From Baylisascaris procyonis (lineage: Eukaryota > Nematoda > Chromadorea > Rhabditida > Ascarididae): a stretch of 64,000 nt of DNA. Made by a program: the position numbers and the translations under genes. The DNA lies in NCBI GenBank assembly GCA_037389465.1, contig JAZARR010000171.1, positions 2,108,001 through 2,172,000 on the forward strand. Direction: 5' to 3'. The notes under the pieces are model-generated. The model did not search any database. It was not told the DNA's origin and saw only the letters and a program-made list of their open reading frames with translations. Shown piece by piece: positions 40,766-64,000 of the stretch; positions within the stretch are counted from its first letter, which is position 1, and each line of letters starts with the position of its first letter.

Positions 40766-40820
40766 TGGAACCCTAGAATTTCCACATGCAAAGCGAGCGC
40801 TCTATGCTGAGCTAAACCCC
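40766..40820 (-). pseudogene. tRNA-Ala remnant at array edge
   Basis: Anticodon arm and D arm are recognisable; the T arm is decayed and the D stem has lost bases (CTCTATGCTGAGC on +). Outermost array copy. Confidence 0.7.
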
Positions 40821-40975
40821 TTATGATTAGTGAGTGAGGTAACAATGTTTGATCAGCAATTCTTAGTAGTTCCCACTTATTATTACATAAGAAAAAATAT
40901 TTTTTAAAACCGGTATAACTGTTGCGCTGTGTGTTGGACGAGAAGCACTGAGGTAATAGTTCTCAATGTCACAGC

Positions 40976-41059
40976 TGTCCGCCGCAGGATTCGAACCTGC
41001 GCCTACAGATGTAGACGGCGACCTGAACGCAGCGCCTTAGACCGCTCGGCCAGACTGAC
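40976..41059 (-). tRNA. tRNA-Leu (CAG), unit 1
   Basis: Degenerate edge copy: C4 changed to A in the acceptor stem and a mismatch in the anticodon stem. Confidence 0.65.
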
Positions 41060-41128
41060 TTCGTTCAATGCCAAAACCACCAGCACACGGCCATTCCGCT
41101 ATCCTTTGAGACGAAAGAGACAAATATG

Positions 41129-41200
41129 CGGAGCATGAGGGGTTCGAGCCCTCCACTTCTCGCATGCAAAGCGAGCGCTCTACCGCTGAGCTAAACACCT
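41129..41200 (-). tRNA. tRNA-Ala (UGC), unit 1
   Basis: Degenerate: acceptor 5' strand AGGTGTT, several T-arm and discriminator changes. Confidence 0.6.
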
Positions 41201-41354
41201 TGTGATTGTTGATTGAGGTAACAATGTCTGATCAGCAATTCTTAGTACTTCCCACGTAACATTACATAAGAAAAAATATTTTTTAAATCCGGTATAGCTG
41301 TTGCACAAAACGTTGGACGAGAAGCATTGAGAAAATAGTTCTCAACGTAATAGC

Positions 41355-41438
41355 TGTCCGCCTCAGGATTCGAACCTGCGCCTACAGATGTAGACTGCGA
41401 CCTGAACGCAGCGCATTAGACCACTCGGCCAGAAGGAC
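41355..41438 (-). tRNA. tRNA-Leu (CAG), unit 2
   Basis: G23 to T in the D stem, T-stem end mismatch, acceptor change. Confidence 0.65.
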
Positions 41439-41508
41439 GTCGTTCCAAGGCCAAAACCATCAGCAAACGGCCATTCCGCTATCCTTTGAGACGAAAGAGA
41501 CAAATATG

Positions 41509-41580
41509 TGGAGGATGAGGGGTTCGAACCCTCGACTTCTCGCATGCAAAGGGAGCGCTCTACCGCTGAGCTAAACGCCC
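41509..41580 (-). tRNA. tRNA-Ala (UGC), unit 2
   Basis: G30 to C (anticodon-stem mismatch) and G4 to C (acceptor mismatch). Confidence 0.65.
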
Positions 41581-41734
41581 TGTGATTATTGATTGAAGTA
41601 ACAATATGCGATAGGCAATTCTTAGTTGTTCCCACGTAACATTACATAAGAAAAAATATTTTTTAAATCCGGTATAACTGTTGCACAAAACGTTGGACGA
41701 GAAGAATTGAGATAATAGTTCTCACTGTAATAGC

Positions 41735-41818
41735 TGTCGGCCGCAGGATTCGAACCTGCGCCTACAGATGTAGACTGCGACCTGAACGCAGCGCCTTAGA
41801 CCACTCGGCCAGACGGAC
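41735..41818 (-). tRNA. tRNA-Leu (CAG), unit 3
   Basis: G69 to C, breaking the 4:69 acceptor pair. Confidence 0.75.
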
Positions 41819-41888
41819 GTCGTTCCAAGACCAAAATCATCAAAACACCGGCATTTCCCTTTCCTTTGTGACGAAAGAGACAAATATT

Positions 41889-41960
41889 TGGAGGATGAGA
41901 GGTTCGAACCCTCGACTTCTCGCATGCAAAGGGAGCGCTCTACCGCTGAGCTAAACGCCC
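41889..41960 (-). tRNA. tRNA-Ala (UGC), unit 3
   Basis: As unit 2, plus a G:U in the T stem. Confidence 0.65.
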
Positions 41961-42114
41961 TGTGATTATTGATTGAAGTAACAATATGCGATAGGCAATT
42001 CTTAGTTGTTCCCACGTAACATTACATAAGAAAAAATATTTTTTAAATCCGGTATAACTGTTGCACAAAACGTTGGACGAGAATCATTGAGATAATAGTT
42101 CTCACTGTTATAGC

Positions 42115-42262
42115 TCTCGGCCGCAGGATTCGAACCTGCGCCTACAGATGTAGACTGCGACCTGAACGCAGCGCCTTAGACCACTCGGCCAGACGGATGA
42201 GGGGTTCGAACCCTCGACTTCTCGCACGCAAAGCGAGCGCTCTACCGCTGAGCTAAACCCCT
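42115..42262 (-). pseudogene. fused tRNA-Ala/tRNA-Leu, unit 4
   Basis: The spacer is deleted so the Ala 3' acceptor strand runs into the Leu 5' acceptor through a shared GGATGA/GGACG stretch. Neither acceptor stem is complete. Confidence 0.85.
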
Positions 42263-42415
42263 GTTATTATTCAGTGAGGTAACAATGTCTGATCAGCAAT
42301 TCTTAGTACTTCACATGTATCGTTACATAAGAAAAAATATTTTTTTTAACCGGTCCACCTGTTGCACAAAACGTTGGACGAGAAGCATTGAGGCGATAGT
42401 TCTCAATGTTATAGC

Positions 42416-42499
42416 TGTCCGCCGCAGGATTCGAACCTGCGCCTACAGATGTAGACTGCGACCTGAACGCAACGGCTTAGACGACTCGGCCAGACGGAC
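42416..42499 (-). tRNA. tRNA-Leu (CAG), unit 5
   Basis: D-arm variant: G18 to C, G24 to C, C27 to T. Loses an invariant D-loop G and one D-stem pair. Confidence 0.65.
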
Positions 42500-42569
42500 G
42501 TCGTTCCAATACAAAAATCGTCGAAACACCGGCATTTCGCTATCCTTTGTGACGAAAGAGACAAATATG

Positions 42570-42641
42570 TGGAGGATGAGAGGTTCGAACCCTCGGCTTC
42601 TCGCATGCAAAGCGAGCGCTCTACCGCTGAGCTAAACCCCT
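42570..42641 (-). tRNA. tRNA-Ala (UGC), unit 5
   Basis: One G lost at the acceptor 5' end; C48 region and T-stem changes. Confidence 0.65.
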
Positions 42642-42794
42642 GTTATTGTTGATTGAAGTAACAATGTCTGATCAGCAATTCTTAGTTGTTCCCACGTAAA
42701 TTTACATAAGAAAAAATATTTTTTAAATCCGGTATAACTGTTGCACAAAACGTTGGACGAGAATCATTGAGATAATAGTTGTTAATCTAATAGC

Positions 42795-42878
42795 TGTCCG
42801 CCGCAGGATTCGAACCTGCGCCTACAGATGTAGACTGCGACCTGAACGCAACGGCTTAGACGACTCGGCCAGACGGAC
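42795..42878 (-). tRNA. tRNA-Leu (CAG), unit 6
   Basis: D-arm variant as in unit 5. Confidence 0.65.
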
Positions 42879-42948
42879 GTCGTTCCAATACAAAAATCCT
42901 CGAAACACCGGCATTTCGCTATCCTTTGTGACGAAAGAGACAAATATG

Positions 42949-43019
42949 TGGAGGATGAGGGTTCGAACCCTCGACTTCTCGCACGCAAAGCGAGCGCTCT
43001 ACCGCTGAGCTAAACCCCC
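42949..43019 (-). tRNA. tRNA-Ala (UGC), unit 6
   Basis: 71 nt: one C lost from the T stem; A37 to G. Confidence 0.6.
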
Positions 43020-43173
43020 TGTGATTGTTGATTGAAGTAACAATGTCTGATCAGCAATTCTTAGTACTTCACATGTATCGTTACATAAGAAAAAATATTT
43101 TTTTTAACCGGTCCACCTGTTGCACAAAACGTTGGACGAGAAGCATTGAGGCGATAGTTCTCAATGTTATAGC

Positions 43174-43257
43174 TGTCCGCCGCAGGATTCGAACCTGCGC
43201 CTACAGATGTAGACTGCGACCTGAACGCAACGGCTTAGACGACTCGGCCAGACGGAC
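43174..43257 (-). tRNA. tRNA-Leu (CAG), unit 7
   Basis: D-arm variant as in unit 5. Confidence 0.65.
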
Positions 43258-43327
43258 GTCGTTCCAATACAAAAATCGTCGAAACACCGGCATTTCGCTA
43301 TCCTTTGTGACGAAAGAGACAAATATG

Positions 43328-43399
43328 TGGAGGATGAGGGGTTCGAACCCTCGGCTTCTCGCATGCAAAGCGAGCGCTCTACCGCTGAGCTAAACCCCT
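43328..43399 (-). tRNA. tRNA-Ala (UGC), unit 7
   Basis: Acceptor 5' end short by one G; otherwise near consensus. Confidence 0.7.
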
Positions 43400-43552
43400 G
43401 TTATTGTTGATTGAAGTAACAATGTCTGATCAGCAATTCTTAGTTGTTCCCACGTAAATTTACATAAGAAAAAATATTTTTTAAATCCGGTATAACTGTT
43501 GCACAAAACGTTGGACGAGAATCATTGAGATAATAGTTGTTAATCTAATAGC

Positions 43553-43636
43553 TGTCCGCCGCAGGATTCGAACCTGCGCCTACAGATGTAGACTGCGACC
43601 TGAACGCAACGGCTTAGACGACTCGGCCAGACGGAC
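43553..43636 (-). tRNA. tRNA-Leu (CAG), unit 8
   Basis: D-arm variant as in unit 5. Confidence 0.65.
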
Positions 43637-43706
43637 GTCGTTCCAATACAAAAATCCTCGAAACACCGGCATTTCGCTATCCTTTGTGACGAAAGAGACA
43701 AATATG

Positions 43707-43777
43707 TGGAGGATGAGGGTTCGAACCCTCGACTTCTCGCACGCAAAGCGAGCGCTCTACCGCTGAGCTAAACCCCC
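43707..43777 (-). tRNA. tRNA-Ala (UGC), unit 8
   Basis: 71 nt, T-stem deletion as unit 6. Confidence 0.6.
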
Positions 43778-43931
43778 TGTGATTGTTGATTGAAGTAACA
43801 ATGTCTGATCAGCAATTCTTAGTTGTTCCCACGAAACTTTACATAAGAAAAAATATTTTTTAAATCCGGTGTAACTGTTGCACAAAACGTTGGACGAGAA
43901 TCATTGAGATAATAGTTCTTAATCTAATAGC

Positions 43932-44015
43932 TCTCCGCCGCAGGATTCGAACCTGCGCCTACAGATGTAGACTGCGACCTGAACGCAACGGCTTAGACCA
44001 CTCGGCCAGACGGAC
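43932..44015 (-). tRNA. tRNA-Leu (CAG), unit 9
   Basis: G24 to C, C27 to T, and C72 to G (first acceptor pair broken). Confidence 0.65.
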
Positions 44016-44085
44016 GTCGTTCCAAGACAAAAATCATCAAAGCACCCGTGTTTCGCTTTCCTTTGTGACGAAAGAGACAAATATG

Positions 44086-44157
44086 TGGAGGATGAGGGGT
44101 TCGAACCCTCAACTTCTCGCATGCAAAGCGAGCGCTCTACCGCTGAGCTAAACCCCC
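44086..44157 (-). tRNA. tRNA-Ala (UGC), unit 9
   Basis: C48 to T only. Confidence 0.88.
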
Positions 44158-44281
44158 TGTGATTACCGATTGAAGTAAAAATGTATGATCAGCAATTCTT
44201 AGTAGTTCCCACGCAACATTACACAAGAAAAAATATTTTTTAAATCCGGTATAACTGTTGCACAAAACGTTGGAAGAGAAT

Positions 44282-44304
44282 CATTGAGATAATAGTTCTC
44301 AATG
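44282..44304 (-). repeat. hairpin next to tRNA-Leu 3' end (example, unit 10)
   Basis: CATTGAGA, 7-base loop, TCTCAATG. On the transcribed strand it begins 7 bases after the tRNA-Leu 3' end. Most units have it; see findings. Confidence 0.85.
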
Positions 44305-44311
44305 TAATAGC

Positions 44312-44395
44312 TGTCCGCCGCAGGATTCGAACCTGCGCCTACAGATGTAGACTGCGACCTGAACGCAACGGCTTAGACCACTCGGCCAGACGGAC
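44312..44395 (-). tRNA. tRNA-Leu (CAG), unit 10
   Basis: G24 to C and C27 to T. Confidence 0.7.
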
Positions 44396-44466
44396 GTCGC
44401 TCGGAGGCCAAAAACCATCAGCACACGGCCATTCCGCTATCCTTTGAGACGAAAGAGGCAAATATG

Positions 44467-44538
44467 TGGAGGATGAGGGGTTCGAACCCTCGACTTCTCG
44501 CATGCAAAGCGAGCGCTCTACCGCTGAGCTAAACCCCC
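44467..44538 (-). tRNA. tRNA-Ala (UGC), unit 10
   Basis: Consensus. Confidence 0.94.
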
Positions 44539-44692
44539 TGTGATTGTTGACTGAAGTAACAATATGCGATAGGCAATTCTTAGTTGTTCCCGCGTAACAT
44601 TACATAAGAAAAAATATTTTTTAAATCCGGTATAACTGTTGCACAAAACGTTGGACGAGAATCATTGAGATAACAGTTCTCAATGTAATAGC

Positions 44693-44776
44693 TGTCCGCC
44701 GCAGGATTCGAACCTGCGCCTACAGATGTAGACTGCGACCTGAACGCAGCGCCTTAGACCACTCGGCCAGACGGAC
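44693..44776 (-). tRNA. tRNA-Leu (CAG), unit 11
   Basis: Consensus. Confidence 0.95.
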
Positions 44777-44846
44777 GTCGTTCCAAGACAAAAATCGTCG
44801 AAACACCGGCATTTCGCCATCCATTGAGACGAAAGAGACAAAAATG

Positions 44847-44918
44847 TGGAGGATGAGGGGTTCGAACCCTCGACTTCTCGCATGCAAAGCGAGCGCTCTA
44901 CCGCTGAGCTAAACCCCC
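44847..44918 (-). tRNA. tRNA-Ala (UGC), unit 11
   Basis: Consensus. Confidence 0.94.
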
Positions 44919-45072
44919 TGTGATTGTTGACTGAAGTAACAATATGCGATAGGCAATTCTTAGTTGTTCCCGCGTAACATTACATAAGAAAAAATATTTT
45001 TTAAATCCGGTATAACTGTTGCACAAAACGTTGGACGAGAATCATTGAGATAACAGTTCTCAATGTAATAGC

Positions 45073-45156
45073 TGTCCGCCGCAGGATTCGAACCTGCGCC
45101 TACAGATGTAGACTGCGACCTGAACGCAGCGCCTTAGACCACTCGGCCAGACGGAC
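45073..45156 (-). tRNA. tRNA-Leu (CAG), unit 12
   Basis: Consensus. Confidence 0.95.
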
Positions 45157-45226
45157 GTCGTTCCAAGACAAAAATCGTCGAAACACCGGCATTTCGCCAT
45201 CCTTTGAGACGAAAGAGACAAAAATG

Positions 45227-45298
45227 TGGAGGATGAGGGGTTCGAACCCTCGACTTCTCGCATGCAAAGCGAGCGCTCTACCGCTCAGCTAAACGCCC
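45227..45298 (-). tRNA. tRNA-Ala (UGC), unit 12
   Basis: G4 to C and C13 to G: one acceptor and one D-stem mismatch. Confidence 0.72.
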
Positions 45299-45451
45299 AG
45301 TGATTACTCAATGAAGTAAAAATATCTGATCAGCGATTCCTAGTAGTTCCCATGTAACATTACATACGAAAAGATATTTTTAAATCCGGTATAAGTGTTG
45401 CACAAAACGTTGAACGAGAATCATTGAGATGATAGTTCTCAATGTAATAGC

Positions 45452-45535
45452 TGTCCGCCGCAGGATTCGAACCTGCGCCTACAGATGTAGACTGCGACCT
45501 GAACGCAGCGCCTTAGACCACTCGGCCAGACGGAT
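45452..45535 (-). tRNA. tRNA-Leu (CAG), unit 13
   Basis: G1 to A. Confidence 0.8.
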
Positions 45536-45606
45536 GTCGCTGCGAGGCCAAAAACCATCAGCACACGGCCATTTCGCTTTCCTCTGTGACGAAAGAGACA
45601 AATATG

Positions 45607-45678
45607 TGGAGGATGAGGGGTTCGAACCCTCGACTTCTCGCATGCAAAGCGAGCGCTCTACCGCTCAGCTAAACGCCC
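45607..45678 (-). tRNA. tRNA-Ala (UGC), unit 13
   Basis: G4C/C13G variant. Confidence 0.72.
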
Positions 45679-45831
45679 AGTGATTACTCAATGAAGTAAA
45701 AATATCTGATCAGCGATTCCTAGTAGTTCCCATGTAACATTACAAACGAAAAGATATTTTTAAATCCGGTATAAGTGTTGCACAAAACGTTGGACGAGAA
45801 GCTTTGAGATAATAGTTGTCATGGTAGGAGC

Positions 45832-45915
45832 TGTCCTCCGCGGGATTCGAACCTGCGCCTACAGATGTAGACTGCGACCTGAACGCAGCGCATTAGACCA
45901 CTCGGCCAGACGGAC
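45832..45915 (-). tRNA. tRNA-Leu (CAG), unit 14
   Basis: G23 to T; acceptor 5:68 and T-stem 51:63 mismatches. Confidence 0.65.
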
Positions 45916-45985
45916 CTCGTTCCAAGGCCAAAACCATCAGCACACGGCCATTCCGCTATCCTTTGAGACGAAAGAGACAAATATG

Positions 45986-46057
45986 TGGAGGATGAGGGGT
46001 TCGAACCCTCGACTTCTCGCATGCAAAGCGAGCGCTCTATCGCTGAGCTAAACCCCT
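45986..46057 (-). tRNA. tRNA-Ala (UGC), unit 14
   Basis: G19 to A in the D loop; acceptor short by one G. Confidence 0.65.
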
Positions 46058-46210
46058 GTTATTAGTCAGTGAGGTAACAATGTCTGATCAGCAATTCTTA
46101 GTACTTCCCACGTATCGTTACATAAGAAAAAATATTTTTTTTAACCGGTCCACTTGTTGCACAAAACGTTGGACGAGAAGCTTTGAGATAATAGTTGTCA
46201 TGGTAGGAGC

Positions 46211-46294
46211 TGTCCTCCGCCGGATTCGAACCTGCGCCTACAGATGTAGACTGGGACCTGAACGCAGCGCATTAGACCACTCGGCCAGACGGAC
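46211..46294 (-). tRNA. tRNA-Leu (CAG), unit 15
   Basis: As unit 14 with a further anticodon-stem mismatch (G40 to C). Confidence 0.6.
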
Positions 46295-46364
46295 GTCGTT
46301 CCAAGGCCAAAACCATCAGCACACGGCCATTCCGCTATCCTTTGTGACGAAAGAGACAAAAATG

Positions 46365-46436
46365 TGGAGGATGAGGGGTTCGAACCCTCGACTTCTCGCA
46401 TGCAAAGGGAGCGCTCTACCGCTGAGCTAAACGCCC
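46365..46436 (-). tRNA. tRNA-Ala (UGC), unit 15
   Basis: G30C/G4C variant as unit 2. Confidence 0.65.
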
Positions 46437-46590
46437 TGTGATTATTGATTGAAGTAACAATATGCGATAGGCAATTCTTAGTTGTTCCCACGTAACATTA
46501 CATAAGAAAAAATATTTTTTAAATCCGGTATAACTGTTGCACAAAACGTTGGACGAGAATCATTGAGATAATAGTTCTCACTGTTATAGC

Positions 46591-46738
46591 TCTCGGCCGC
46601 AGGATTCGAACCTGCGCCTACAGATGTAGACTGCGACCTGAACGCAGCGCCTTAGACCACTCGGCCAGACGGATGAGGGGTTCGAACCCTCGACTTCTCG
46701 CACGCAAAGCGAGCGCTCTACCGCTGAGCTAAACCCCT
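46591..46738 (-). pseudogene. fused tRNA-Ala/tRNA-Leu, unit 16
   Basis: Same deletion joint as unit 4, exactly 4,476 bp away. Confidence 0.85.
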
Positions 46739-46891
46739 GTTATTATTCAGTGAGGTAACAATGTCTGATCAGCAATTCTTAGTACTTCACATGTATCGTT
46801 ACATAAGAAAAAATATTTTTTTTAACCGGTCCACCTGTTGCACAAAACGTTGGACGAGAAGCATTGAGGCGATAGTTCTCAATGTTATAGC

Positions 46892-46975
46892 TGTCCGCCG
46901 CAGGATTCGAACCTGCGCCTACAGATGTAGACTGCGACCTGAACGCAACGGCTTAGACGACTCGGCCAGACGGAC
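46892..46975 (-). tRNA. tRNA-Leu (CAG), unit 17
   Basis: D-arm variant as in unit 5. Confidence 0.65.
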
Positions 46976-47045
46976 GTCGTTCCAATACAAAAATCGTCGA
47001 AACACCGGCATTTCGCTATCCTTTGTGACGAAAGAGACAAATATG

Positions 47046-47117
47046 TGGAGGATGAGGGGTTCGAACCCTCGGCTTCTCGCATGCAAAGCGAGCGCTCTAC
47101 CGCTGAGCTAAACGCCT
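47046..47117 (-). tRNA. tRNA-Ala (UGC), unit 17
   Basis: Acceptor 5' strand AGGCGTT. Confidence 0.65.
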
Positions 47118-47270
47118 GTTATTGTTGATTGAAGTAACAATGTCTGATCAGCAATTCTTAGTTGTTCCCACGTAAATTTACATAAGAAAAAATATTTTTT
47201 AAATCCGGTATAACTGTTGCACAAAACGTTGGACGAGAATCATTGAGATAATAGTTGTTAATCTAATAGC

Positions 47271-47354
47271 TGTCCGCCGCAGGATTCGAACCTGCGCCTA
47301 CAGATGTAGACTGCGACCTGAACGCAACGGCTTAGACGACTCGGCCAGACGGAC
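47271..47354 (-). tRNA. tRNA-Leu (CAG), unit 18
   Basis: D-arm variant as in unit 5. Confidence 0.65.
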
Positions 47355-47424
47355 GTCGTTCCAATACAAAAATCGTCGAAACACCGGCATTTCGCTATCC
47401 TTTGTGACGAAAGAGACAAATATG

Positions 47425-47495
47425 TGGAGGATGAGGGTTCGAACCCTCGACTTCTCGCACGCAAAGCGAGCGCTCTACCGCTGAGCTAAACCCCC
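47425..47495 (-). tRNA. tRNA-Ala (UGC), unit 18
   Basis: 71 nt, T-stem deletion as unit 6. Confidence 0.6.
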
Positions 47496-47649
47496 TGTGA
47501 TTGTTGATTGAAGTAACAATGTCTGATCAGCAATTCTTAGTTGTTCCCGCGTAACATTACATAAGAAAAAATATTTTTTAAATCCGGTATAACTGTTGCA
47601 CAAAACGTTGGACGAGAATCATTGAGATAACAGTTCTCAATGTAATAGC

Positions 47650-47733
47650 TGTCCGCCGCAGGATTCGAACCTGCGCCTACAGATGTAGACTGCGACCTGA
47701 ACGCAGCGCCTTAGACCACTCGGCCAGACGGAC
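47650..47733 (-). tRNA. tRNA-Leu (CAG), unit 19
   Basis: Consensus. Confidence 0.95.
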
Positions 47734-47803
47734 GTCGTTCCAAGACAAAAATCGTCGAAACACCGGCATTTCGCCATCCATTGAGACGAAAGAGACAAAA
47801 ATG

Positions 47804-47875
47804 TGGAGGATGAGGGGTTCGAACCCTCGACTTCTCGCATGCAAAGCGAGCGCTCTACCGCTGAGCTAAACCCCC
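47804..47875 (-). tRNA. tRNA-Ala (UGC), unit 19
   Basis: Consensus. Confidence 0.94.
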
Positions 47876-48029
47876 TGTGATTGTTGACTGAAGTAACAAT
47901 ATGCGATAGGCAATTCTTAGTTGTTCCCGCGTAACATTACATAAGAAAAAATATTTTTTAAATCCGGTATAACTGTTGCACAAAACGTTGGACGAGAATC
48001 ATTGAGATAACAGTTCTCAATGTAATAGT

Positions 48030-48113
48030 TGTCCGCCGCAGGATTCGAACCTGCGCCTACAGATGTAGACTGCGACCTGAACGCAGCGCCTTAGACCACT
48101 CGGCCAGACGGAC
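48030..48113 (-). tRNA. tRNA-Leu (CAG), unit 20
   Basis: Consensus. Confidence 0.95.
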
Positions 48114-48183
48114 GTCGTTCCAAGACAAAAATCGTCGAAACACCGGCATTTCGCCATCCTTTGAGACGAAAGAGACAAAAATG

Positions 48184-48255
48184 TGGAGGATGAGGGGTTC
48201 GAACCCTCGACTTCTCGCATGCAAAGCGAGCGCTCTACCGCTGAGCTAAACCCCC
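48184..48255 (-). tRNA. tRNA-Ala (UGC), unit 20
   Basis: Consensus. Confidence 0.94.
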
Positions 48256-48408
48256 TGTGATTACCGATTGAAGTAAAAATGTATGATCAGCAATTCTTAG
48301 TAGTTCGCATGTAACATTACATAAGAAAAGATATTTTCAAATCCGGTATAAGTGTTGCACAAAACGTTGGACGAGAATCATTGAGATAATAGTTCTCAAT
48401 CTAATAGC

Positions 48409-56379: not shown

Positions 56380-56463
56380 TGTCCGCCACAGGATTCGAAC
56401 CTGCGCCTACAGATGTAGACTGCGACCTGAACGCAGCGGCTTAGACCACTCGGCCAGACTGAC
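56380..56463 (-). tRNA. tRNA-Leu (CAG), unit 42
   Basis: Same changes as unit 21. Confidence 0.7.
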
Positions 56464-56532
56464 TTCGTTCAATGCCAAAACCATCAGCACACGGCCATTC
56501 CGCTATCCTTTGAGACGAAAGAGACAAATATG

Positions 56533-56604
56533 TGGAGGATGAGGGGTTCGAACCCTCGACTTCTCGCATGCAAAGCGAGCGCTCTACCGCTGAGCTAAAC
56601 CCCC
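56533..56604 (-). tRNA. tRNA-Ala (UGC), unit 42
   Basis: Consensus. Confidence 0.94.
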
Positions 56605-56757
56605 TGTGATTACCGATTGAAGTAAAAATGTATGATCAGCAATTCTTAGTAGTTCGCATGTAACATTACATAAGAAAAGATATTTTTAAATCCGGTATAA
56701 GAGTTGCACAAAACGTTGGACGAGAATCATTGAGATAATAGTTCTCAATCTAATAGC

Positions 56758-56841
56758 TGTCCGCCACAGGATTCGAACCTGCACCTACAGATGTAGACTG
56801 CGACCTGAACGCAGCGCCTTAGACCACTCGGCCAGACGGAC
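56758..56841 (-). tRNA. tRNA-Leu (CAG), unit 43
   Basis: G49:U65 and C48 to T. Confidence 0.88.
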
Positions 56842-56911
56842 GTCGTTCCAAGACAAAAATCGTCGAAACACCGGCATTTCGCCATCCTTTGAGACGAAAG
56901 AGACAAAAATG

Positions 56912-56983
56912 TGGAGGATGAGGGGTTCGAACCCTCGACTTCTCGCCTGCAAAGCGAGCGCTCTACCGCTGAGCTAAACCCCC
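56912..56983 (-). tRNA. tRNA-Ala (UGC), unit 43
   Basis: T38 to G. Confidence 0.9.
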
Positions 56984-57137
56984 TGTGATTACCGATTGAA
57001 GTAAAAATGTATGATCAGCAATTCTTAGTAGTTCCCACGCAACATTACATAAGAAAAAATATTTTTTAAATCCGGTATAACTGTTGCACAAAACGTTGGA
57101 CGAGAAGCATTGAGATAATAGTTCTCATTGTTATAGC

Positions 57138-57221
57138 TGTCGGCCACAGGATTCGAACCTGCGCCTACAGATGTAGACTGCGACCTGAACGCAGCGCCTT
57201 AGACCACTCGGCCAGACGGAC
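57138..57221 (-). tRNA. tRNA-Leu (CAG), unit 44
   Basis: As unit 39. Confidence 0.75.
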
Positions 57222-57291
57222 GTCGTTCCAAGGCCAAAACCATCAGCGAACGGCCATTCCGCTATCCTTTGAGACGAAAGAGACAAATATG

Positions 57292-57363
57292 TGGAGGATG
57301 AGGGGTTCGAACCCTCGACTTCTCGCATGCAAAGCGAGCGCTCTACCGCTGAGCTAAACCCCC
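57292..57363 (-). tRNA. tRNA-Ala (UGC), unit 44
   Basis: Consensus. Confidence 0.94.
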
Positions 57364-57517
57364 TGTGATTGTTGACTGAAGTAACAATATGCGATAGGCA
57401 ATTCTTAGTTGTTCCCGCGTAACATTACATAAGAAAAAATATTTTTTAAATCCGGTATAACTGTTGCACAAAACGTTGGACGAGAATCATTGAGATAACA
57501 GTTCTCAATGTAATAGC

Positions 57518-57601
57518 TGTCCGCCGCAGGATTCGAACCTGCGCCTACAGATGTAGACTGCGACCTGAACGCAGCGCCTTAGACCACTCGGCCAGACGGA
57601 C
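57518..57601 (-). tRNA. tRNA-Leu (CAG), unit 45
   Basis: Consensus. Confidence 0.95.
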
Positions 57602-57671
57602 GTCGTTCCAATACAAAAATCGTCGAAACACCGGCATTTCGCCATCCTTTGAGACGAAAGAGACAAAAATG

Positions 57672-57743
57672 TGGAGGATGAGGGGTTCGAACCCTCGACT
57701 TCTCGCATGCAAAGCGAGCGCTCTACCGCTCAGCTAAACGCCC
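57672..57743 (-). tRNA. tRNA-Ala (UGC), unit 45
   Basis: G4C/C13G variant. Confidence 0.72.
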
Positions 57744-57896
57744 AGTGATTACTCAATGAAGTAAAAATATCTGATCAGCGATTCCTAGTAGTTCCCATGT
57801 AACATTACATACGAAAAGATATTTTTAAATCCGGTATAAGCGTTGCACAAAACGTTGGACGAGAATCATTGAGATGATAGTTCTCAATGTAATAGC

Positions 57897-57980
57897 TGTC
57901 CGCCGCAGGATTCCAACCTGCGCCTACAGATGTAGACTGCGACCTGAACGCAGCGCCTTAGACCACTCGGCCAGACGGAC
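57897..57980 (-). tRNA. tRNA-Leu (CAG), unit 46
   Basis: T-loop C56 to G. Confidence 0.75.
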
Positions 57981-58050
57981 GTCGTTCCAAGACAAAAATC
58001 ATCAGCACACGGCCATTCCGCTATCCTTTGAGACGAAAGAGACAAATATG

Positions 58051-58122
58051 TCGAGGATGAGGGGTTCGAACCCCCGACTTCTCGCATGCAAAGCGAGCGC
58101 TCTACCGCTGACCTAAACCCCC
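58051..58122 (-). tRNA. tRNA-Ala (UGC), unit 46
   Basis: As unit 24. Confidence 0.65.
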
Positions 58123-58276
58123 TGTTATTAGTCAGTGAGGTAACAATGTCTGATCAGCAATTCTTAGTACTTCCCACGTATCGTTACATAAGAAAAAATA
58201 TTTTTTTTAACCGGTCCACCTGTTGCACAAAACGTTGGACGAGAATCATTGAGATGATAGTTCTCAATGTAATAGC

Positions 58277-58360
58277 TGTCCGCCGCAGGATTCGAACCTG
58301 CGCCTACATATGTAGACTGCGATCTGAACGCAGCGCCTTAGACCACTCGGCCAGACGGAC
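58277..58360 (-). tRNA. tRNA-Leu (CAG), unit 47
   Basis: As unit 25 (G37 to A). Confidence 0.88.
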
Positions 58361-58430
58361 GTCGTTCCAAGACAAAAATCATCAGCACACGGCCATTCCG
58401 CTATCCTTCGTGACGAAAGAGACAAATATG

Positions 58431-58502
58431 TGGAGGATGAGGGGTTCGAACCCTCGACTTCTCGCATGCAAAGCGAGCGCTCTACCGCTGAGCTAAGCCC
58501 CC
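58431..58502 (-). tRNA. tRNA-Ala (UGC), unit 47
   Basis: T6 to C. Confidence 0.88.
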
Positions 58503-58656
58503 TGTGATTGTTGATTGAAGTAACAATATGCGATAGGCAATTCTTAGTTGTTCCCACGTAACATTACATAAGAAAAAATATTTTTTAAATCCGGTATAAC
58601 TGTTGCACAAAACGTTGGACGAGAATCATTGAGATAACAGTTCTCAATGTAATAGT

Positions 58657-58740
58657 TGTCCGCCGCAGGATTCGAACCTGCGCCTACAGATGTAGACTGC
58701 GACCTGAACGCAGCGCCTTAGACCACTCGGCCAGACGGAC
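58657..58740 (-). tRNA. tRNA-Leu (CAG), unit 48
   Basis: Consensus. Confidence 0.95.
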
Positions 58741-58810
58741 GTCGTTCCAAGACAAAAATCGTCGAAACACCGGCATTTCGCCATCCTTTGAGACGAAAGA
58801 GACAAAAATG

Positions 58811-58882
58811 TGGAGGATGAGGGGTTCGAACCCTCGACTTCTCGCATGCAAAGCGAGCGCTCTACCGCTGACCTAAACCCCC
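58811..58882 (-). tRNA. tRNA-Ala (UGC), unit 48
   Basis: C11 to G. Confidence 0.75.
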
Positions 58883-59036
58883 TGTTATTAGTCAGTGAGG
58901 TAACAATGTCTGATCAGCAATTCTTAGTACTTCCCACGTATCGTTACATAAGAAAAAATATTTTTTTTAACCGGTCCACCTGTTGCACAAAACGTTGGAC
59001 GAGAATCATTGAGATGATAGTTCTCAATGTAATAGC

Positions 59037-59120
59037 TGTCCGCCGCAGGATTCGAACCTGCGCCTACAGATGTAGACTGCGATCTGAACGCAGCGCCTTA
59101 GACCACTCGGCCAGACGGAC
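59037..59120 (-). tRNA. tRNA-Leu (CAG), unit 49
   Basis: G37 to A. Confidence 0.9.
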
Positions 59121-59190
59121 GTCGTTCCAAGACAAAAATCATCAGCACACGGCCATTCCGCTATCCTTCGTGACGAAAGAGACAAATATG

Positions 59191-59262
59191 TGGAGGATGA
59201 GGGGTTCGAACCCTCGACTTCTCGCATGCAAAGCGAGCGCTCTACCGCTGAGCTAAACCCCC
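59191..59262 (-). tRNA. tRNA-Ala (UGC), unit 49
   Basis: Consensus. Confidence 0.94.
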
Positions 59263-59415
59263 TGTGATTACCGATTGAAGTAAAAATGTATGATCGGCGA
59301 TTCCTAGTAGTTCCCATGTAACATTACATACGAAAAGATATTTTTAGATCCGGTATAAGTGTTGCACAAAACGTTGGACGAGAATCATTGAGATGATAGT
59401 TCTCAATGTAATAGC

Positions 59416-59499
59416 TGTCCGCCGCAGGATTCGAACCTGCGCCTACAGATGTAGACTGCGACCTGAACGCAGCGCCTTAGACCACTCGGCCAGACGGAC
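59416..59499 (-). tRNA. tRNA-Leu (CAG), unit 50
   Basis: Consensus. Confidence 0.95.
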
Positions 59500-59569
59500 G
59501 TCGTTCCAAGACAAAAATCATCAGCACACGGCCATTCCGCTATCCTTCGTGACGAAAGAGACAAATATG

Positions 59570-59641
59570 TGGAGGATGAGGGGTTCGAACCCTCGACTTC
59601 TCGCATGCAAAGCGAGCGCTCTACCGCTGAGCTAAACCCCC
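59570..59641 (-). tRNA. tRNA-Ala (UGC), unit 50
   Basis: Consensus. Confidence 0.94.
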
Positions 59642-59794
59642 TGTGATTACCGATTGAAGTAAAAATGTATGATCAGCAATTCTTAGTAGATCGCATGTAA
59701 CATTACATAAGAAAAGATATTTTTAAATCCGGTATAAGTGTTGCACAAAACGTTGGACGAGAATCATTGAGATAATAGTTCTCAATCTAATAGC

Positions 59795-59878
59795 TGTCCG
59801 CCACAGGATTCGAACCTGCGCCTACAGATGTAGACTGCGACCTGAACGCAGCGGCTTAGACCACTCGGCCAGACTGAC
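59795..59878 (-). tRNA. tRNA-Leu (CAG), unit 51
   Basis: Same changes as unit 21. Confidence 0.7.
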
Positions 59879-59947
59879 TTCGTTCAATGCCAAAACCATC
59901 AGCACACGGCCATTCCGCTATCCTTTGAGACGAAAGAGACAAATATG

Positions 59948-60019
59948 TGGAGGATGAGGGGTTCGAACCCTCGACTTCTCGCATGCAAAGCGAGCGCTCT
60001 ACCGCTGAGCTAAACCCCC
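59948..60019 (-). tRNA. tRNA-Ala (UGC), unit 51
   Basis: Consensus. Confidence 0.94.
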
Positions 60020-60172
60020 TGTGATTACCGATTGAAGTAAAAATGTATGATCAGCAATTCTTAGTAGTTCGCATGTAACATTACATAAGAAAAGATATTT
60101 TTAAATCCGGTATAAGAGTTGCACAAAACGTTGGACGAGAATCATTGAGATAATAGTTCTCAATCTAATAGC

Positions 60173-60256
60173 TGTCCGCCACAGGATTCGAACCTGCACC
60201 TACAGATGTAGACTGCGACCTGAACGCAGCGCCTTAGACCACTCGGCCAGACGGAC
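60173..60256 (-). tRNA. tRNA-Leu (CAG), unit 52
   Basis: G49:U65 and C48 to T. Confidence 0.88.
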
Positions 60257-60326
60257 GTCGTTCCAAGACAAAAATCGTCGAAACACCGGCATTTCGCCAT
60301 CCTTTGAGACGAAAGAGACAAAAATG

Positions 60327-60398
60327 TGGAGGATGAGGGGTTCGAACCCTCGACTTCTCGCCTGCAAAGCGAGCGCTCTACCGCTGAGCTAAACCCCC
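60327..60398 (-). tRNA. tRNA-Ala (UGC), unit 52
   Basis: T38 to G. Confidence 0.9.
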
Positions 60399-60552
60399 TG
60401 TGATTACCGATTGAAGTAAAAATGTATGATCAGCAATTCTTAGTAGTTCCCACGCAACATTACATAAGAAAAAATATTTTTTAAATCCGGTATAACTGTT
60501 GCACAAAACGTTGGAAGAGAATCATTGAGATAATAGTTCTCAATGTAATAGC

Positions 60553-60636
60553 TGTCCGCCGCAGGATTCCAACCTGCGCCTACAGATGTAGACTGCGACC
60601 TGAACGCAGCGCCTTAGACCACTCGGCCAGACGGAC
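60553..60636 (-). tRNA. tRNA-Leu (CAG), unit 53
   Basis: T-loop C56 to G. Confidence 0.75.
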
Positions 60637-60706
60637 GTCGTTCCAACACAAAAATCGTCGAAACACCGGCATTTCGCCATCCTTTGAGACGAAAGAGACA
60701 AAAATG

Positions 60707-60778
60707 TGGAGGATGAGGGGTTCGAACCCTCGACTTCTCGCCTGCAAAGCGAGCGCTCTACCGCTGAGCTAAACCCCC
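60707..60778 (-). tRNA. tRNA-Ala (UGC), unit 53
   Basis: T38 to G. Confidence 0.9.
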
Positions 60779-60932
60779 TGTGATTACCGATTGAAGTAAA
60801 AATGTATGATCAGCAATTCTTAGTAGTTCCCACGCAACATTACATAAGAAAAAATATTTTTTAAATCCGGTATAACTGTTGCACAAAACGTTGGAAGAGA
60901 ATCATTGAGATAATAGTTCTCAATGTAATAGC

Positions 60933-61016
60933 TGTCCGCCGCAGGATTCCAACCTGCGCCTACAGATGTAGACTGCGACCTGAACGCAGCGCCTTAGACC
61001 ACTCGGCCAGACGGAC
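60933..61016 (-). tRNA. tRNA-Leu (CAG), unit 54
   Basis: T-loop C56 to G. Confidence 0.75.
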
Positions 61017-61086
61017 GTCGTTCCAACACAAAAATCGTCGAAACACCGGCATTTCGCCATCCTTTGAGACGAAAGAGACAAAAATG

Positions 61087-61158
61087 TGGAGGATGAGGGG
61101 TTCGAACCCTCGACTTCTCGCATGCAAAGCGAGCGCTCTACCGCTGAGCTAAACCCCC
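61087..61158 (-). tRNA. tRNA-Ala (UGC), unit 54
   Basis: Consensus. Confidence 0.94.
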
Positions 61159-61312
61159 TGTGATTGTTGATTGAAGTAACAATATGCGATAGGCAATTCT
61201 TAGTTGTTCCCACGTAACATTACATAAGAAAAAATATTTTTTAAATCCGGTATAACTGTTGCACAAAACGTTGGAAGAGAATCATTGAGATAATAGTTCT
61301 CAATGTAATAGC

Positions 61313-61396
61313 TGTCCGCCGCAGGATTCCAACCTGCGCCTACAGATGTAGACTGCGACCCGAACGCAGCGCCTTAGACCACTCGGCCAGACGGAC
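61313..61396 (-). tRNA. tRNA-Leu body with CGG (Pro) anticodon, unit 55
   Basis: Duplicate of unit 33: A35 to G and C56 to G. Confidence 0.8.
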
Positions 61397-61467
61397 GTCG
61401 CTCGGAGGCCAAAAACCATCAGCACACGGCCATTCCGCTATCCTTTGAGACGAAAGAGGCAAATATG

Positions 61468-61539
61468 TGGAGGATGAGGGGTTCGAACCCTCGACTTCTC
61501 GCATGCAAAGCGAGCGCTCTACCGCTCAGCTAAACGCCC
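61468..61539 (-). tRNA. tRNA-Ala (UGC), unit 55
   Basis: G4C/C13G variant. Confidence 0.72.
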
Positions 61540-61692
61540 AGTGATTACTCAATGAAGTAAAAATATCTGATCAGCGATTCCTAGTAGTTCCCATGTAACA
61601 TTACATACGAAAAGATATTTTTAAATCCGGTATAAGTGTTGCACAAAACGTTGGACGAGAAGCTTTGAGATAATAGTTGTCATGGTAGGAGC

Positions 61693-61776
61693 TGTCCTCC
61701 GCGGGATTCGAACCTGCGCCTACAGATGTAGACTGCGACCTGAACGCAGCGCATTAGACCACTCGGCCAGACGGAC
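61693..61776 (-). tRNA. tRNA-Leu (CAG), unit 56
   Basis: Same changes as unit 14. Confidence 0.65.
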
Positions 61777-61846
61777 GTCGTTCCAAGGCCAAAACCATCA
61801 GCACACGGCCATTCCGCTATCCTTTGAGACGAAAGAGACAAATATG

Positions 61847-61918
61847 TGGAGGATGAGGGGTTCGAACCCTCGACTTCTCGCATGCAAAGCGAGCGCTCTA
61901 CCGCTGAGCTAAACCCCC
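61847..61918 (-). tRNA. tRNA-Ala (UGC), unit 56
   Basis: Consensus. Confidence 0.94.
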
Positions 61919-62072
61919 TGTGATTGTTGATTGAAGTAACAATATGCGATAGGCAATTCTTAGTTGTTCCCACGTAACATTACATAAGAAAAAATATTTT
62001 TTAAATCCGGTATAACTGTTGCACAAAACGTTGGACGAGAATCATTGAGATAACAGTTCTCAATGTAATAGC

Positions 62073-62156
62073 TGTCCGCCGCAGGATTCGAACCTGCGCC
62101 TACAGATGTAGACTGCGACCTGAACGCAGCGCCTTAGACCACTCGGCCAGACGGAC
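62073..62156 (-). tRNA. tRNA-Leu (CAG), unit 57
   Basis: Consensus. Confidence 0.95.
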
Positions 62157-62226
62157 GTCGTTCCAAGACAAAAATCGTCGAAACACCGGCATTTCGCCAT
62201 CCTTTGAGACGAAAGAGACAAAAATG

Positions 62227-62298
62227 TTGAGGGTGAGGGGTTCGAACCCTCGACTTCTCGCCTGCAAAGCGAGCGCTCTACCGCTGAGCTAAACCCCC
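62227..62298 (-). tRNA. tRNA-Ala (UGC), unit 57
   Basis: As unit 35. Confidence 0.7.
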
Positions 62299-62452
62299 TG
62301 TGATTACCGATTGAAGTAAAAATGTATGATCAGCAATTCTTAGTAGTTCCCACGTAACATTACATAAGAAAAAATATTTTTTAAATCCGGTATAACTGTT
62401 GCACAAAACGTTGGACGAGAATCATTGAGATGATAGTTCTCAATGTAATAGC

Positions 62453-62536
62453 TGTCCGCCGCAGGATTCGAACCTGCGCCTACAGATGTAGACTGCGACC
62501 TGAACGCAGCGCCTTAGACCACTCGGCCAGACGGAC
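62453..62536 (-). tRNA. tRNA-Leu (CAG), unit 58
   Basis: Consensus. Confidence 0.95.
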
Positions 62537-62606
62537 GTCGTTCCAAGACAAAAATCATCAGCACACGGCCATTCCGCTATCCTTCGTGACGAAAGAGACA
62601 AATATG

Positions 62607-62678
62607 TGGAGGATGAGGGGTTCGAACCCTCGACTTCTCGCATGCAAAGCGAGCGCTCTACCGCTGAGCTAAACCCCC
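62607..62678 (-). tRNA. tRNA-Ala (UGC), unit 58
   Basis: Consensus. Confidence 0.94.
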
Positions 62679-62830
62679 TGTGATTACCGATTGAAGTAAA
62701 AATGTATGATCAGCGATTCCTAGTAGTTCCCATGTAACATTACATACGAAAAGATATTTTTAAATCCGTATAAGTGTTGCACAAAACGTTGGACGAGAAT
62801 CATTGAGATGATAGTTCTCAATGTAATAGC

Positions 62831-62914
62831 TGTCCGCCGCAGGATTCGAACCTGCGCCTACAGATGTAGACTGCGACCTGAACGCAGCGCCTTAGACCAC
62901 TCGGCCAGACGGAC
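62831..62914 (-). tRNA. tRNA-Leu (CAG), unit 59
   Basis: Consensus. Confidence 0.95.
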
Positions 62915-62985
62915 GTCGCTCGGAGGCCAAAAACCATCAGCACACGGCCATTCCGCTATCCTTTGAGACGAAAGAGGCAAATATG

Positions 62986-63057
62986 TGGAGGATGAGGGGT
63001 TCGAACCCTCGACTTCTCGCATGCAAAGCGAGCGCTCTACCGCTCAGCTAAACGCCC
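62986..63057 (-). tRNA. tRNA-Ala (UGC), unit 59
   Basis: G4C/C13G variant. Confidence 0.72.
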
Positions 63058-63211
63058 AGTGATTACTCAATGAAGTAAAAATATGCGATAGGCAATTCTT
63101 AGTTGTTCCCACGTAACATTACATAAGAAAAAATATTTTTTAAATCCGGTATAACTGTTGCACAAAACGTTGGACGAGAATCATTGAGATAACAGTTCTC
63201 AATGTAATAGT

Positions 63212-63295
63212 TGTCCGCCGCAGGATTCGAACCTGCGCCTACAGATGTAGACTGCGACCTGAACGCAGCGCCTTAGACCACTCGGCCAGACGGAC
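63212..63295 (-). tRNA. tRNA-Leu (CAG), unit 60
   Basis: Consensus. Confidence 0.95.
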
Positions 63296-63365
63296 GTCGT
63301 TCCAAGACAAAAATCGTCGAAACACCGGCATTTCGCCATCCTTTGAGACGAAAGAGACAAAAATG

Positions 63366-63437
63366 TGGAGGATGAGGGGTTCGAACCCTCGACTTCTCGC
63401 ATGCAAAGCGAGCGCTCTACCGCTGAGCTAAACCCCC
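63366..63437 (-). tRNA. tRNA-Ala (UGC), unit 60
   Basis: Consensus. Confidence 0.94.
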
Positions 63438-63590
63438 TGTGATTACCGATTGAAGTAAAAATGTATGATCAGCAATTCTTAGTAGTTCGCATGTAACATT
63501 ACATAAGAAAAGATATTTTCAAATCCGGTATAAGTGTTGCACAAAACGTTGGACGAGAATCATTGAGATAATAGTTCTCAATCTAATAGC

Positions 63591-63674
63591 TGTCCGCCAC
63601 AGGATTCGAACCTGCGCCTACAGATGTAGACTGCGACCTGAACGCAGCGGCTTAGACCACTCGGCCAGACTGAC
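63591..63674 (-). tRNA. tRNA-Leu (CAG), unit 61
   Basis: Same changes as unit 21. Confidence 0.7.
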
Positions 63675-63743
63675 TTCGTTCAATGCCAAAACCATCAGCA
63701 CACGGCCATTCCGCTATCCTTTGAGACGAAAGAGACAAATATG

Positions 63744-63815
63744 TGGAGGATGAGGGGTTCGAACCCTCGACTTCTCGCATGCAAAGCGAGCGCTCTACCG
63801 CTGAGCTAAACCCCC
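63744..63815 (-). tRNA. tRNA-Ala (UGC), unit 61
   Basis: Consensus. Confidence 0.94.
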
Positions 63816-63968
63816 TGTGATTACCGATTGAAGTAAAAATGTATGATCAGCAATTCTTAGTAGTTCGCATGTAACATTACATAAGAAAAGATATTTTTAA
63901 ATCCGGTATAAGAGTTGCACAAAACGTTGGACGAGAATCATTGAGATAATAGTTCTCAATCTAATAGC

Positions 63969-64000
63969 TGTCCGCCACAGGATTCGAACCTGCACCTACA
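63969..64000 (-). tRNA. tRNA-Leu, unit 62, cut by window end
   Basis: Only the 3' acceptor strand and T arm are inside the window; the visible part equals unit 30. Confidence 0.8.

What the first reader, a model, noticed from the sequence alone, without database searches (positions are those of the whole stretch)
40766..64000. A 23-kb array of about 62 tandem tRNA-Ala(UGC)/tRNA-Leu(CAG) pairs
About 123 tRNA genes or relics of two isoacceptors in one uniform head-to-tail array, all on one strand, and not ending inside the window. Isolated tRNA clusters are common, but a strict two-gene 380-bp unit repeated this often is unusual. It could raise supply of these tRNAs, for example for an Ala/Leu-rich product, or act as a chromatin boundary beside the hsp70 region; both roles are inference.
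Basis: partly seen in the sequence, partly recalled or inferred. Interest (0 to 1): 0.88.

Follow-up and report, generated by a model that had tools for sequence, protein, structure and literature searches.

The report
Roundworm tandem array of paired tRNAs
In the genome of a roundworm that appears closely related to Ascaris, one Ala/Leu transfer-RNA gene pair is repeated 65 times head to tail, and because the gene parts vary almost four times less than the DNA between them, the array is likely kept as a bulk supply of these two tRNAs.

Summary
The array is real. Window 40976-64000 holds 61 Leu-type and 61 Ala(UGC) tRNA genes on the minus strand, in ~380-bp units. It ends about 1.6 kb past the window, with 65 pairs plus a relic at each edge. 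The genome (272.8 Mb) is from a nematode, probably an ascarid: it has SL1 genes and ABA-1-type repeats, one 95% identical to the PDB ABA-1 unit.

Gene parts vary 3.7-fold less than spacers (pi 0.030 vs 0.112). Ala anticodons are TGC in 65 of 65; Leu are CAG in 63 of 65. Roughly half the genes pass a strict stem/box-B test (35 of 65 Ala, 27 of 65 Leu), so sound and decaying copies mix.

The array holds 65 of the 67 Ala(UGC) genes found and all but one Leu(CAG) gene found. It is not alone: arrays of Ala(AGC/CGC), Leu(AAG/UAG), Lys(UUU) and Gly(GCC) exist, and the Lys array has two allele-like forms of about 94 and 34 copies.

Best reading: a bulk tRNA supply, homogenised by unequal exchange, likely serving germline and eggs. 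Expression is untested. Tandem tRNA arrays are known in Entamoeba, Arabidopsis, human and zebrafish; my searches found none described in ascarids. New member of a known kind.

The parts
40784..40822 (-). Truncated tRNA-Ala relic at the left edge of the array
   Evidence: Sequence; TRF array starts at 40785; not called by ARAGORN
40976..64000 (-). Array of tRNA-Ala(UGC)/tRNA-Leu(CAG) pairs, 61 units in the window; continues to about 65570 in window numbering (65 units plus a Leu relic)
50307..50390 (-). tRNA-Leu(CAG) of one representative unit
   Evidence: Rfam 53.9 bits
50460..50532 (-). tRNA-Ala(UGC) beside it
   Evidence: Rfam 57.4 bits
50630..50653 (-). Conserved 24-base spacer core in one unit; holds the usual first T4 downstream of a Leu gene
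   Evidence: 65 genome-wide matches, all in this array; overlaps the longest low-variation run of the upstream spacer, permutation p 0.012
49168..54861 (-). Units 23-37, first copy of a near-identical block 22 units apart
   Evidence: Unit-to-unit identity 99.2-100% at offset 22; longer stretch 48701-55400 vs 57051-63748 at 99.3%
57518..63211 (-). Units 45-59, second copy of that block
42115..42264 (-). 301-bp deletion unit: the spacer between Ala and Leu is lost and the Ala 3' end runs into the Leu gene
   Evidence: overlapping genes; 301-bp spacing; 2 Ala genes lack base 70
46591..46740 (-). Second deletion unit, 12 units away, 100% identical to the first over the aligned unit
52963..53046 (-). 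Leu-type tRNA with CGG anticodon (would read Pro codon CCG) and a mutated box B; probably inactive
61313..61396 (-). Duplicate of the CGG variant, 22 units away

Best explanation
This is a 24.6-kb tandem array of 65 tRNA-Ala(UGC)/tRNA-Leu(CAG) gene pairs, nearly every gene followed by a T-run of the kind that ends Pol III transcripts, and it is likely maintained as the bulk gene supply for these two tRNAs. Shown: the array, its copy number in this assembly, lower variation in genes than in spacers, near-invariant anticodons, multi-unit block duplications, and sister arrays for other tRNAs. Inferred: unequal exchange between units grows, shrinks and homogenises the array while selection on total output removes bad units, so roughly half of the copies stay sound and the rest decay. 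Inferred from the zebrafish precedent, with no data here: the array mainly serves the ovary, egg and early embryo, where translation capacity must be built fast, while the few isolated copies (two Ala, and one Leu with three base changes) serve later tissues.
For: Gene positions pi 0.0304 against spacer 0.1117; the true gene placement ranks 1 of 380 rotations around the unit. Non-box gene positions (0.033) are about as conserved as boxes A/B (0.025), p 0.36, and below spacers, p 0.0002. Anticodons TGC 65 of 65, CAG 63 of 65; no T4 inside any gene body. T4+ within 52 nt after 63 of 65 Ala genes and within 46 nt after Leu genes 2-65; 66 nt after Leu 1. G3:U70 in 63 of 65 Ala. Genome-wide, Ala(UGC) core: 65 array and 2 isolated genes; Leu(CAG) core: one isolated gene outside the array. 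The same gene/spacer contrast, 4.9 to 7.9-fold, holds in 5 of 5 other array stretches aligned, which represent 3 tRNA sets because two pairs look allelic. Lys array: flanks 99.4-99.6% identical on two contigs, about 94 and 34 copies. [quoted passage not shown] Baylisascaris schroederi: 6190 tRNA genes with numbers that follow codon usage (PMC9684166, passages).
Against: No expression data. By a strict test only 35 of 65 Ala and 27 of 65 Leu genes keep all stem pairs and box B, and 18 of 65 units keep both. The array Ala consensus is identical to one isolated gene, so the Ala side shows no array-specific form; in the Lys arrays two genes outside the arrays (C152, C177) also match the array form exactly over the 42 bases tested. 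In Arabidopsis a comparable cluster is silent in most tissues (PMC12308677, abstract and passages). In Entamoeba, tRNA gene number is not linked to codon usage (PMC2652664, Function section). Low variation among copies can partly reflect homogenisation, and copies share ancestry, so p values are guides only. In zebrafish, changes in tRNA levels did not track codon frequency.
Confidence: 0.6

Rival explanations
1. Neutral repeat expansion: a tRNA pair was caught in unequal exchange and amplified; most copies are silent or redundant, and the gene/spacer contrast mostly reflects conversion from a few good copies.
For: Multi-unit block duplications, about half the genes damaged by a strict test, more diverged edge units (best match of unit 1 is 0.926 and of unit 65 0.934), copy-number difference in the Lys array. 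For Entamoeba the authors think many copies are probably inactive.
Against: Without selection, genes and spacers of one unit should vary alike; they differ 3.7-fold here and 4.9-7.9-fold in the 5 other array stretches aligned. Anticodons stay intact. Arrays exist for at least five tRNA sets, this one included.
Confidence: 0.25
2. Silent reserve: the array is packed in heterochromatin and switched on only in one tissue or stage, as for the Arabidopsis Ser/Tyr cluster. This overlaps with the germline part of the best explanation.
For: Same anatomy: two tRNA kinds in one repeated unit with sound and decayed copies; the Arabidopsis cluster is silenced in most tissues and active in root tips.
Against: No chromatin or expression data either way. 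Nearly all Ala(UGC) and Leu(CAG) genes found are in the array, so silence would leave two Ala genes and one Leu gene.
Confidence: 0.25
3. Chromatin boundary: the block of TFIIIC sites insulates the hsp70 region from its neighbour, and tRNA output is secondary.
For: A human tRNA tandem repeat at 1q23.3 binds CTCF and is proposed as a boundary (PMC4041453, abstract). hsp70 exons lie in the same window. The spacer holds a conserved 24-base core.
Against: A boundary needs boxes A and B only; stems, variable arm and anticodons are conserved about as well. Eleven of 65 Leu genes fail the box B test. The spacer core contains the T4 run, which can explain its conservation. That CTCF is missing in derived nematodes is recalled, not tested.
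Confidence: 0.08
4. Assembly inflation: a short array was expanded by the assembler.
For: Units 23-37 and 45-59 are 99.2-100% identical pair by pair. No read data were available.
Against: Mean unit identity is 92.2%, minimum 84.9%, and most units are distinct, which an assembler would not create. Even with one 22-unit block removed, 43 units remain.
Confidence: 0.05

Closest known systems
Arabidopsis thaliana SYY cluster (tRNA-Ser/tRNA-Tyr tandem array, PMC12308677)
   Same: A unit of two tRNA kinds repeated in tandem, with sound and defective copies, expanded by tandem duplication
   Different: Animal instead of plant; Ala/Leu instead of Ser/Tyr; 65 compact 380-bp units; nearly all copies of these tRNAs found lie in the array; silencing untested
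Entamoeba tRNA gene arrays (PMC2652664)
   Same: Multi-gene tRNA units in tandem, with several arrays of different tRNAs in one genome
   Different: No short tandem repeats between genes here; units are not uniform (92% mean identity); nematode
Zebrafish repetitive tRNA clusters, mainly on chromosome 4 (PMC11417395)
   Same: Clustered copies coexist with isolated copies of the same kind of tRNA in an animal genome
   Different: Whether the nematode array is maternal is unknown; uniform two-gene unit
Human 1q23.3 tRNA variable-number tandem repeat (PMC4041453)
   Same: Tandem tRNA unit; copy number varies between alleles (seen here only for the sister Lys array, on two contigs)
   Different: 7.3-kb CTCF-bound unit with tRNA genes under 6% of it; here the two genes are about 41% of a 380-bp unit
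Ascaridoid tRNA gene expansion (Baylisascaris schroederi, 6190 tRNA genes, PMC9684166)
   Same: Very high tRNA gene number in a related worm
   Different: The passages seen give a count and a match to codon usage, and say nothing of arrays

Membership tests
Tandem tRNA gene array (general kind) | Same tRNA unit repeated head to tail on one strand | tested here: met
   65 units, one strand, 62 of 64 spacings 378-381 bp
Tandem tRNA gene array (general kind) | Genes look able to make tRNA | tested here: met
   119 Rfam matches above cut-off in the window; 35 of 65 Ala and 27 of 65 Leu sound by a strict test
Entamoeba-type tRNA arrays | Short tandem repeats between genes (E. histolytica and E. dispar only) | tested here: not met
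   TRF reports only periods of 301, 379 and 380 inside the array (minimum score 50)
Entamoeba-type tRNA arrays | Almost all tRNA genes of the genome lie in arrays | tested here: inconclusive
   Five tRNA sets found in arrays, but no full census: the family search scored 63 of 18002 first-look candidates
SYY-type silenced cluster | Repressed in most tissues, active in one | not testable with these tools
   No expression or chromatin data
Zebrafish-type maternal tRNA clusters | Array and isolated copies are different isodecoders | tested here: inconclusive
   Leu: the isolated gene differs from the array consensus at 3 bases; Ala: one isolated gene identical, the other with one change (sequences)
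Zebrafish-type maternal tRNA clusters | Array tRNAs deposited in the egg | not testable with these tools
   No tRNA sequencing data
tRNA tandem repeat acting as boundary (human 1q23.3) | Insulator protein bound to each unit | not testable with these tools
   A conserved 24-base spacer core exists; binding unknown
tRNA tandem repeat acting as boundary (human 1q23.3) | Copy number varies between alleles | tested here: inconclusive
   No second allele of this array seen (65 of 65 core hits on one contig); the sister Lys array has two forms of about 94 and 34 copies with near-identical flanks

The most novel reading that the evidence does not exclude
Ascarid worms keep a two-tier tRNA gene system: large homogenised arrays for many tRNAs feed the germline and egg, isolated genes feed later tissues, the tRNA counterpart of oocyte-type and somatic-type 5S rRNA genes, with array length varying greatly between alleles.
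Probability: 0.3. Interest if true: 0.8.

Novelty: new member of a known kind. Interest (0 to 1): 0.55.

Why it matters
Why animals keep hundreds of copies of one tRNA gene, and whether all are used, is an open question. Here the array Leu(CAG) consensus differs from the only isolated Leu(CAG) gene found at three bases, so ordinary tRNA sequencing can tell how much of the pool the array supplies, by tissue and stage. The allele-like Lys arrays of about 94 and 34 copies also make tRNA gene dose variation testable inside one species.

Tried and rejected
Ala/Leu-rich product: no support; arrays for Lys and Gly argue for a general mode. Genome codon use of CUG and GCA was not computed. Mistranslating tRNA: the two CGG copies (52963, 61313) could in principle insert Leu at Pro codons, as for nematode nev-tRNAs (PMC4300185, abstract), but both carry a mutated box B, so they are probably dead. 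Whole-genome tRNA census: not reached; the family search scored 63 of 18002 first-look candidates. DNA search with one unit did not list the array itself (the tool skips very common words), so plain patterns were used. Species name: not resolved; the ABA-1-type repeat aligned differs from PDB 2xv9 at 6 of 125 residues, which suggests Ascaris or a near relative. A first attempt at a protein marker (MSP family) was dropped as uninformative. Literature searches touching tandem tRNA arrays in nematodes or ascarids gave listings without such a report; only open-licence PMC papers are held, listings were capped at 20 or 40 rows, and one search returned no paper. Papers opened without use: PMC7647404 (passages), PMC12643312 (passages). 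In one search the Ala anticodon index was off by one and the T-run search after Ala was wrong in some units; both were redone. The T-run count after Leu covers Leu genes 2-65 and the edge relic, not Leu 1, which was checked.
Full report
The observation. ARAGORN finds 121 tRNA genes in the window, all on the minus strand from 40976 to 63815. Rfam adds an Ala gene at 47046-47117, so the window has 61 Leu-type and 61 Ala genes in alternation, plus a truncated Ala at about 40784-40822. Of 64 Leu-to-Leu spacings, 62 are 378-381 bp and two are 301 bp. Order on the minus strand in the consensus is Ala (72 bp), 70 bp, Leu (84 bp), 154 bp, next Ala. The window is part of contig C169 of a 272.8-Mb genome in 293 contigs. 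The DNA beyond the window shows the array ending after 65 full pairs, with a degenerate Leu near 65515 in window numbering.

The organism. The genome has SL1 spliced-leader genes (50 matches scored, one of them above the family cut-off) and an open frame with 17 ABA-1-type repeats. One 125-residue repeat differs from PDB 2xv9, named ABA-1A1 repeat unit, at 6 positions (95% identity). That 2xv9 is from Ascaris is recalled. I infer an ascarid nematode close to Ascaris; the species is open.

Are the genes under constraint? I aligned the 65 units. Mean pairwise difference per site is 0.028 in Ala and 0.033 in Leu against 0.106 and 0.123 in the two spacers. Over all gene positions it is 0.0304 against 0.1117; when the gene mask is rotated around the unit, the true placement ranks first of 380. 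Boxes A and B (0.025) and all other gene positions (0.033) do not differ (p 0.36), while the non-box positions are below the spacers (p 0.0002). Copies share ancestry and sites are not independent, so these p values are guides. Anticodons are TGC in 65 of 65 and CAG in 63 of 65. Alanine's G3:U70 pair (its role as identity element is recalled) is present in 63 of 65; the other two genes lack base 70 and fit the two 301-bp deletion units.

How many copies are sound? By a strict rule (every stem pair standard or G-U, box B intact, CAG anticodon for Leu) 35 of 65 Ala and 27 of 65 Leu pass, and 18 of 65 units pass for both. Eleven of 65 Leu and 4 of 65 Ala genes fail the box B rule. The rule is harsh, because single mismatches are tolerated in many tRNAs. 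No gene has an insertion against the consensus. So the array is a mix of sound and decaying genes.

Terminators. A run of at least four T follows Leu genes 2-65 within 46 nt (in 65 spacers, which include the one after the edge relic: 63 at 44 nt, one at 46, one at 19); after Leu 1 the first run is at 66 nt. After Ala a run is present in 63 of 65: 23 at 2 nt, 38 at 52 nt and 2 at 43 nt. None lies inside a gene body. The four isolated copies read (two Ala(UGC), one Leu(CAG), one Ala(AGC)) have T4-5 within 8 nt of the gene end (sequences). Separate Pol III transcripts for each gene are therefore plausible; read-through into a two-gene transcript is not excluded. The longest low-variation run in the upstream spacer, 18 bases holding the T4 after Leu, exceeds column shuffles at p 0.012; the longest run in the spacer between Ala and Leu does not (p 0.25).

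How the array evolves. Mean unit identity is 92.2% (range 84.9-100%). Neighbours (mean 0.924) are not more alike than units in general, but units 22 apart are: 15 of 43 such pairs reach 99%. Units 23-37 and 45-59 are 99.2-100% identical pair by pair, and the stretches 48701-55400 and 57051-63748 are 99.3% identical with 42 mismatches. The two 301-bp deletion units lie 12 units apart and are identical. The two edge units have the lowest best match (0.926 and 0.934). This is the pattern expected of unequal exchange of multi-unit blocks; assembly inflation of the 22-unit block cannot be ruled out.

How much of the genome's supply is here? A 30-base Ala core with up to 3 mismatches gives 69 hits: 65 in the array, two isolated Ala(UGC) genes (C248, C219) and two cross-hits to other Ala genes. 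A 36-base Leu core gives 66 hits: 65 in the array, one of which is the edge relic (one array gene, at 48788, is not hit and is one base short), and one isolated gene at C169:3583274. Copies with more mismatches would be missed. The array Ala consensus is identical to the C248 gene; the isolated Leu differs at three bases (sequences).

Not alone. C183:1169254-1241390 carries 392 ARAGORN calls, 387 of them Ala(CGC or AGC), mostly 152-154 bp apart. Leu(AAG/UAG) arrays lie on C248 from 739886 and on C94; the core pattern has 219 hits genome-wide (the list shows 100), and the end of the C94 array is 99.5% identical to the start of the C248 array over 2 kb, so they look allelic. Lys(UUU): 132 hits, nearly all on C45 and C183 as far as listed; the flanks match at 99.4-99.6% over 2-3 kb on each side, but the arrays span about 94 and 34 copies, computed from first and last genes and a 293-bp period. 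Gly(GCC): 58 of 70 hits lie on C151:6880921-6894154. In the 5 other array stretches aligned (3 tRNA sets), spacers vary 4.9 to 7.9 times more than genes. Only units with normal spacing were used there: 310 from 392 genes, 93 from 103, 63 from 66, and 18 from 19 in each Lys stretch. A full census was not possible.

Mechanism. The data support a set of tRNA gene arrays held by unequal exchange and by selection on output. That selection acts on tRNA and not only on TFIIIC binding is inferred from the conservation of anticodons and stems. When and where the array is used is not shown. The nearest precedent with data is zebrafish, where maternally deposited tRNAs come from highly repetitive regions and later ones from isolated copies (PMC11417395, Discussion). 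I take the same division as the likeliest here because ascarid females make very many eggs (recalled). The Arabidopsis SYY cluster (PMC12308677, abstract and passages) is the best alternative model, a silent array opened in one tissue.

Novelty. Tandem tRNA arrays are known in Entamoeba (PMC2652664, abstract and Function section), Arabidopsis, human (PMC4041453, abstract) and zebrafish; a survey of eukaryotes reports large clusters beyond Entamoeba (PMC2888827, passages). A related worm is reported with 6190 tRNA genes (PMC9684166, passages). None of the listings showed ascarid arrays, within an open-licence library and capped lists. I rate it a new member of a known kind.

Noticed in passing
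window 973-1347, 6435-6788, 8095-8493, 18915-19226, 21150-21515: Exons matching Pfam HSP70 on the plus strand, apparently from about three tandem hsp70 genes in the same window as the array.
   Followed up: partly
G000:C183:1169254-1241390 (L016-L023): A much larger array of 392 tRNA calls, 387 of them Ala with CGC (244) or AGC (143) anticodon, so the first anticodon base has switched repeatedly inside one array.
   Followed up: partly
G000:C45:19582-46900 and G000:C183:1606380-1616123: Lys(UUU) array in two allele-like forms of about 94 and 34 copies with near-identical flanks.
   Followed up: partly
G000:C89:531858-565344: SL1 spliced-leader genes in tandem about 1113 bp apart.
   Followed up: no
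G000:C292:366433-373191 (L038-L040): One open frame of 2324 aa with 17 ABA-1-type (NPA) repeats, a nematode polyprotein.
   Followed up: partly
window 52963-53046 and 61313-61396: Leu-type tRNAs with a CGG anticodon, which would read a Pro codon; box B is mutated in both.
   Followed up: partly
L031 1336-1821: Open frame with an Ala/Pro-rich head and a Motile_Sperm (PF00635) domain, resembling nematode sperm fibre proteins (the likeness to MFP1 is recalled).
   Followed up: no
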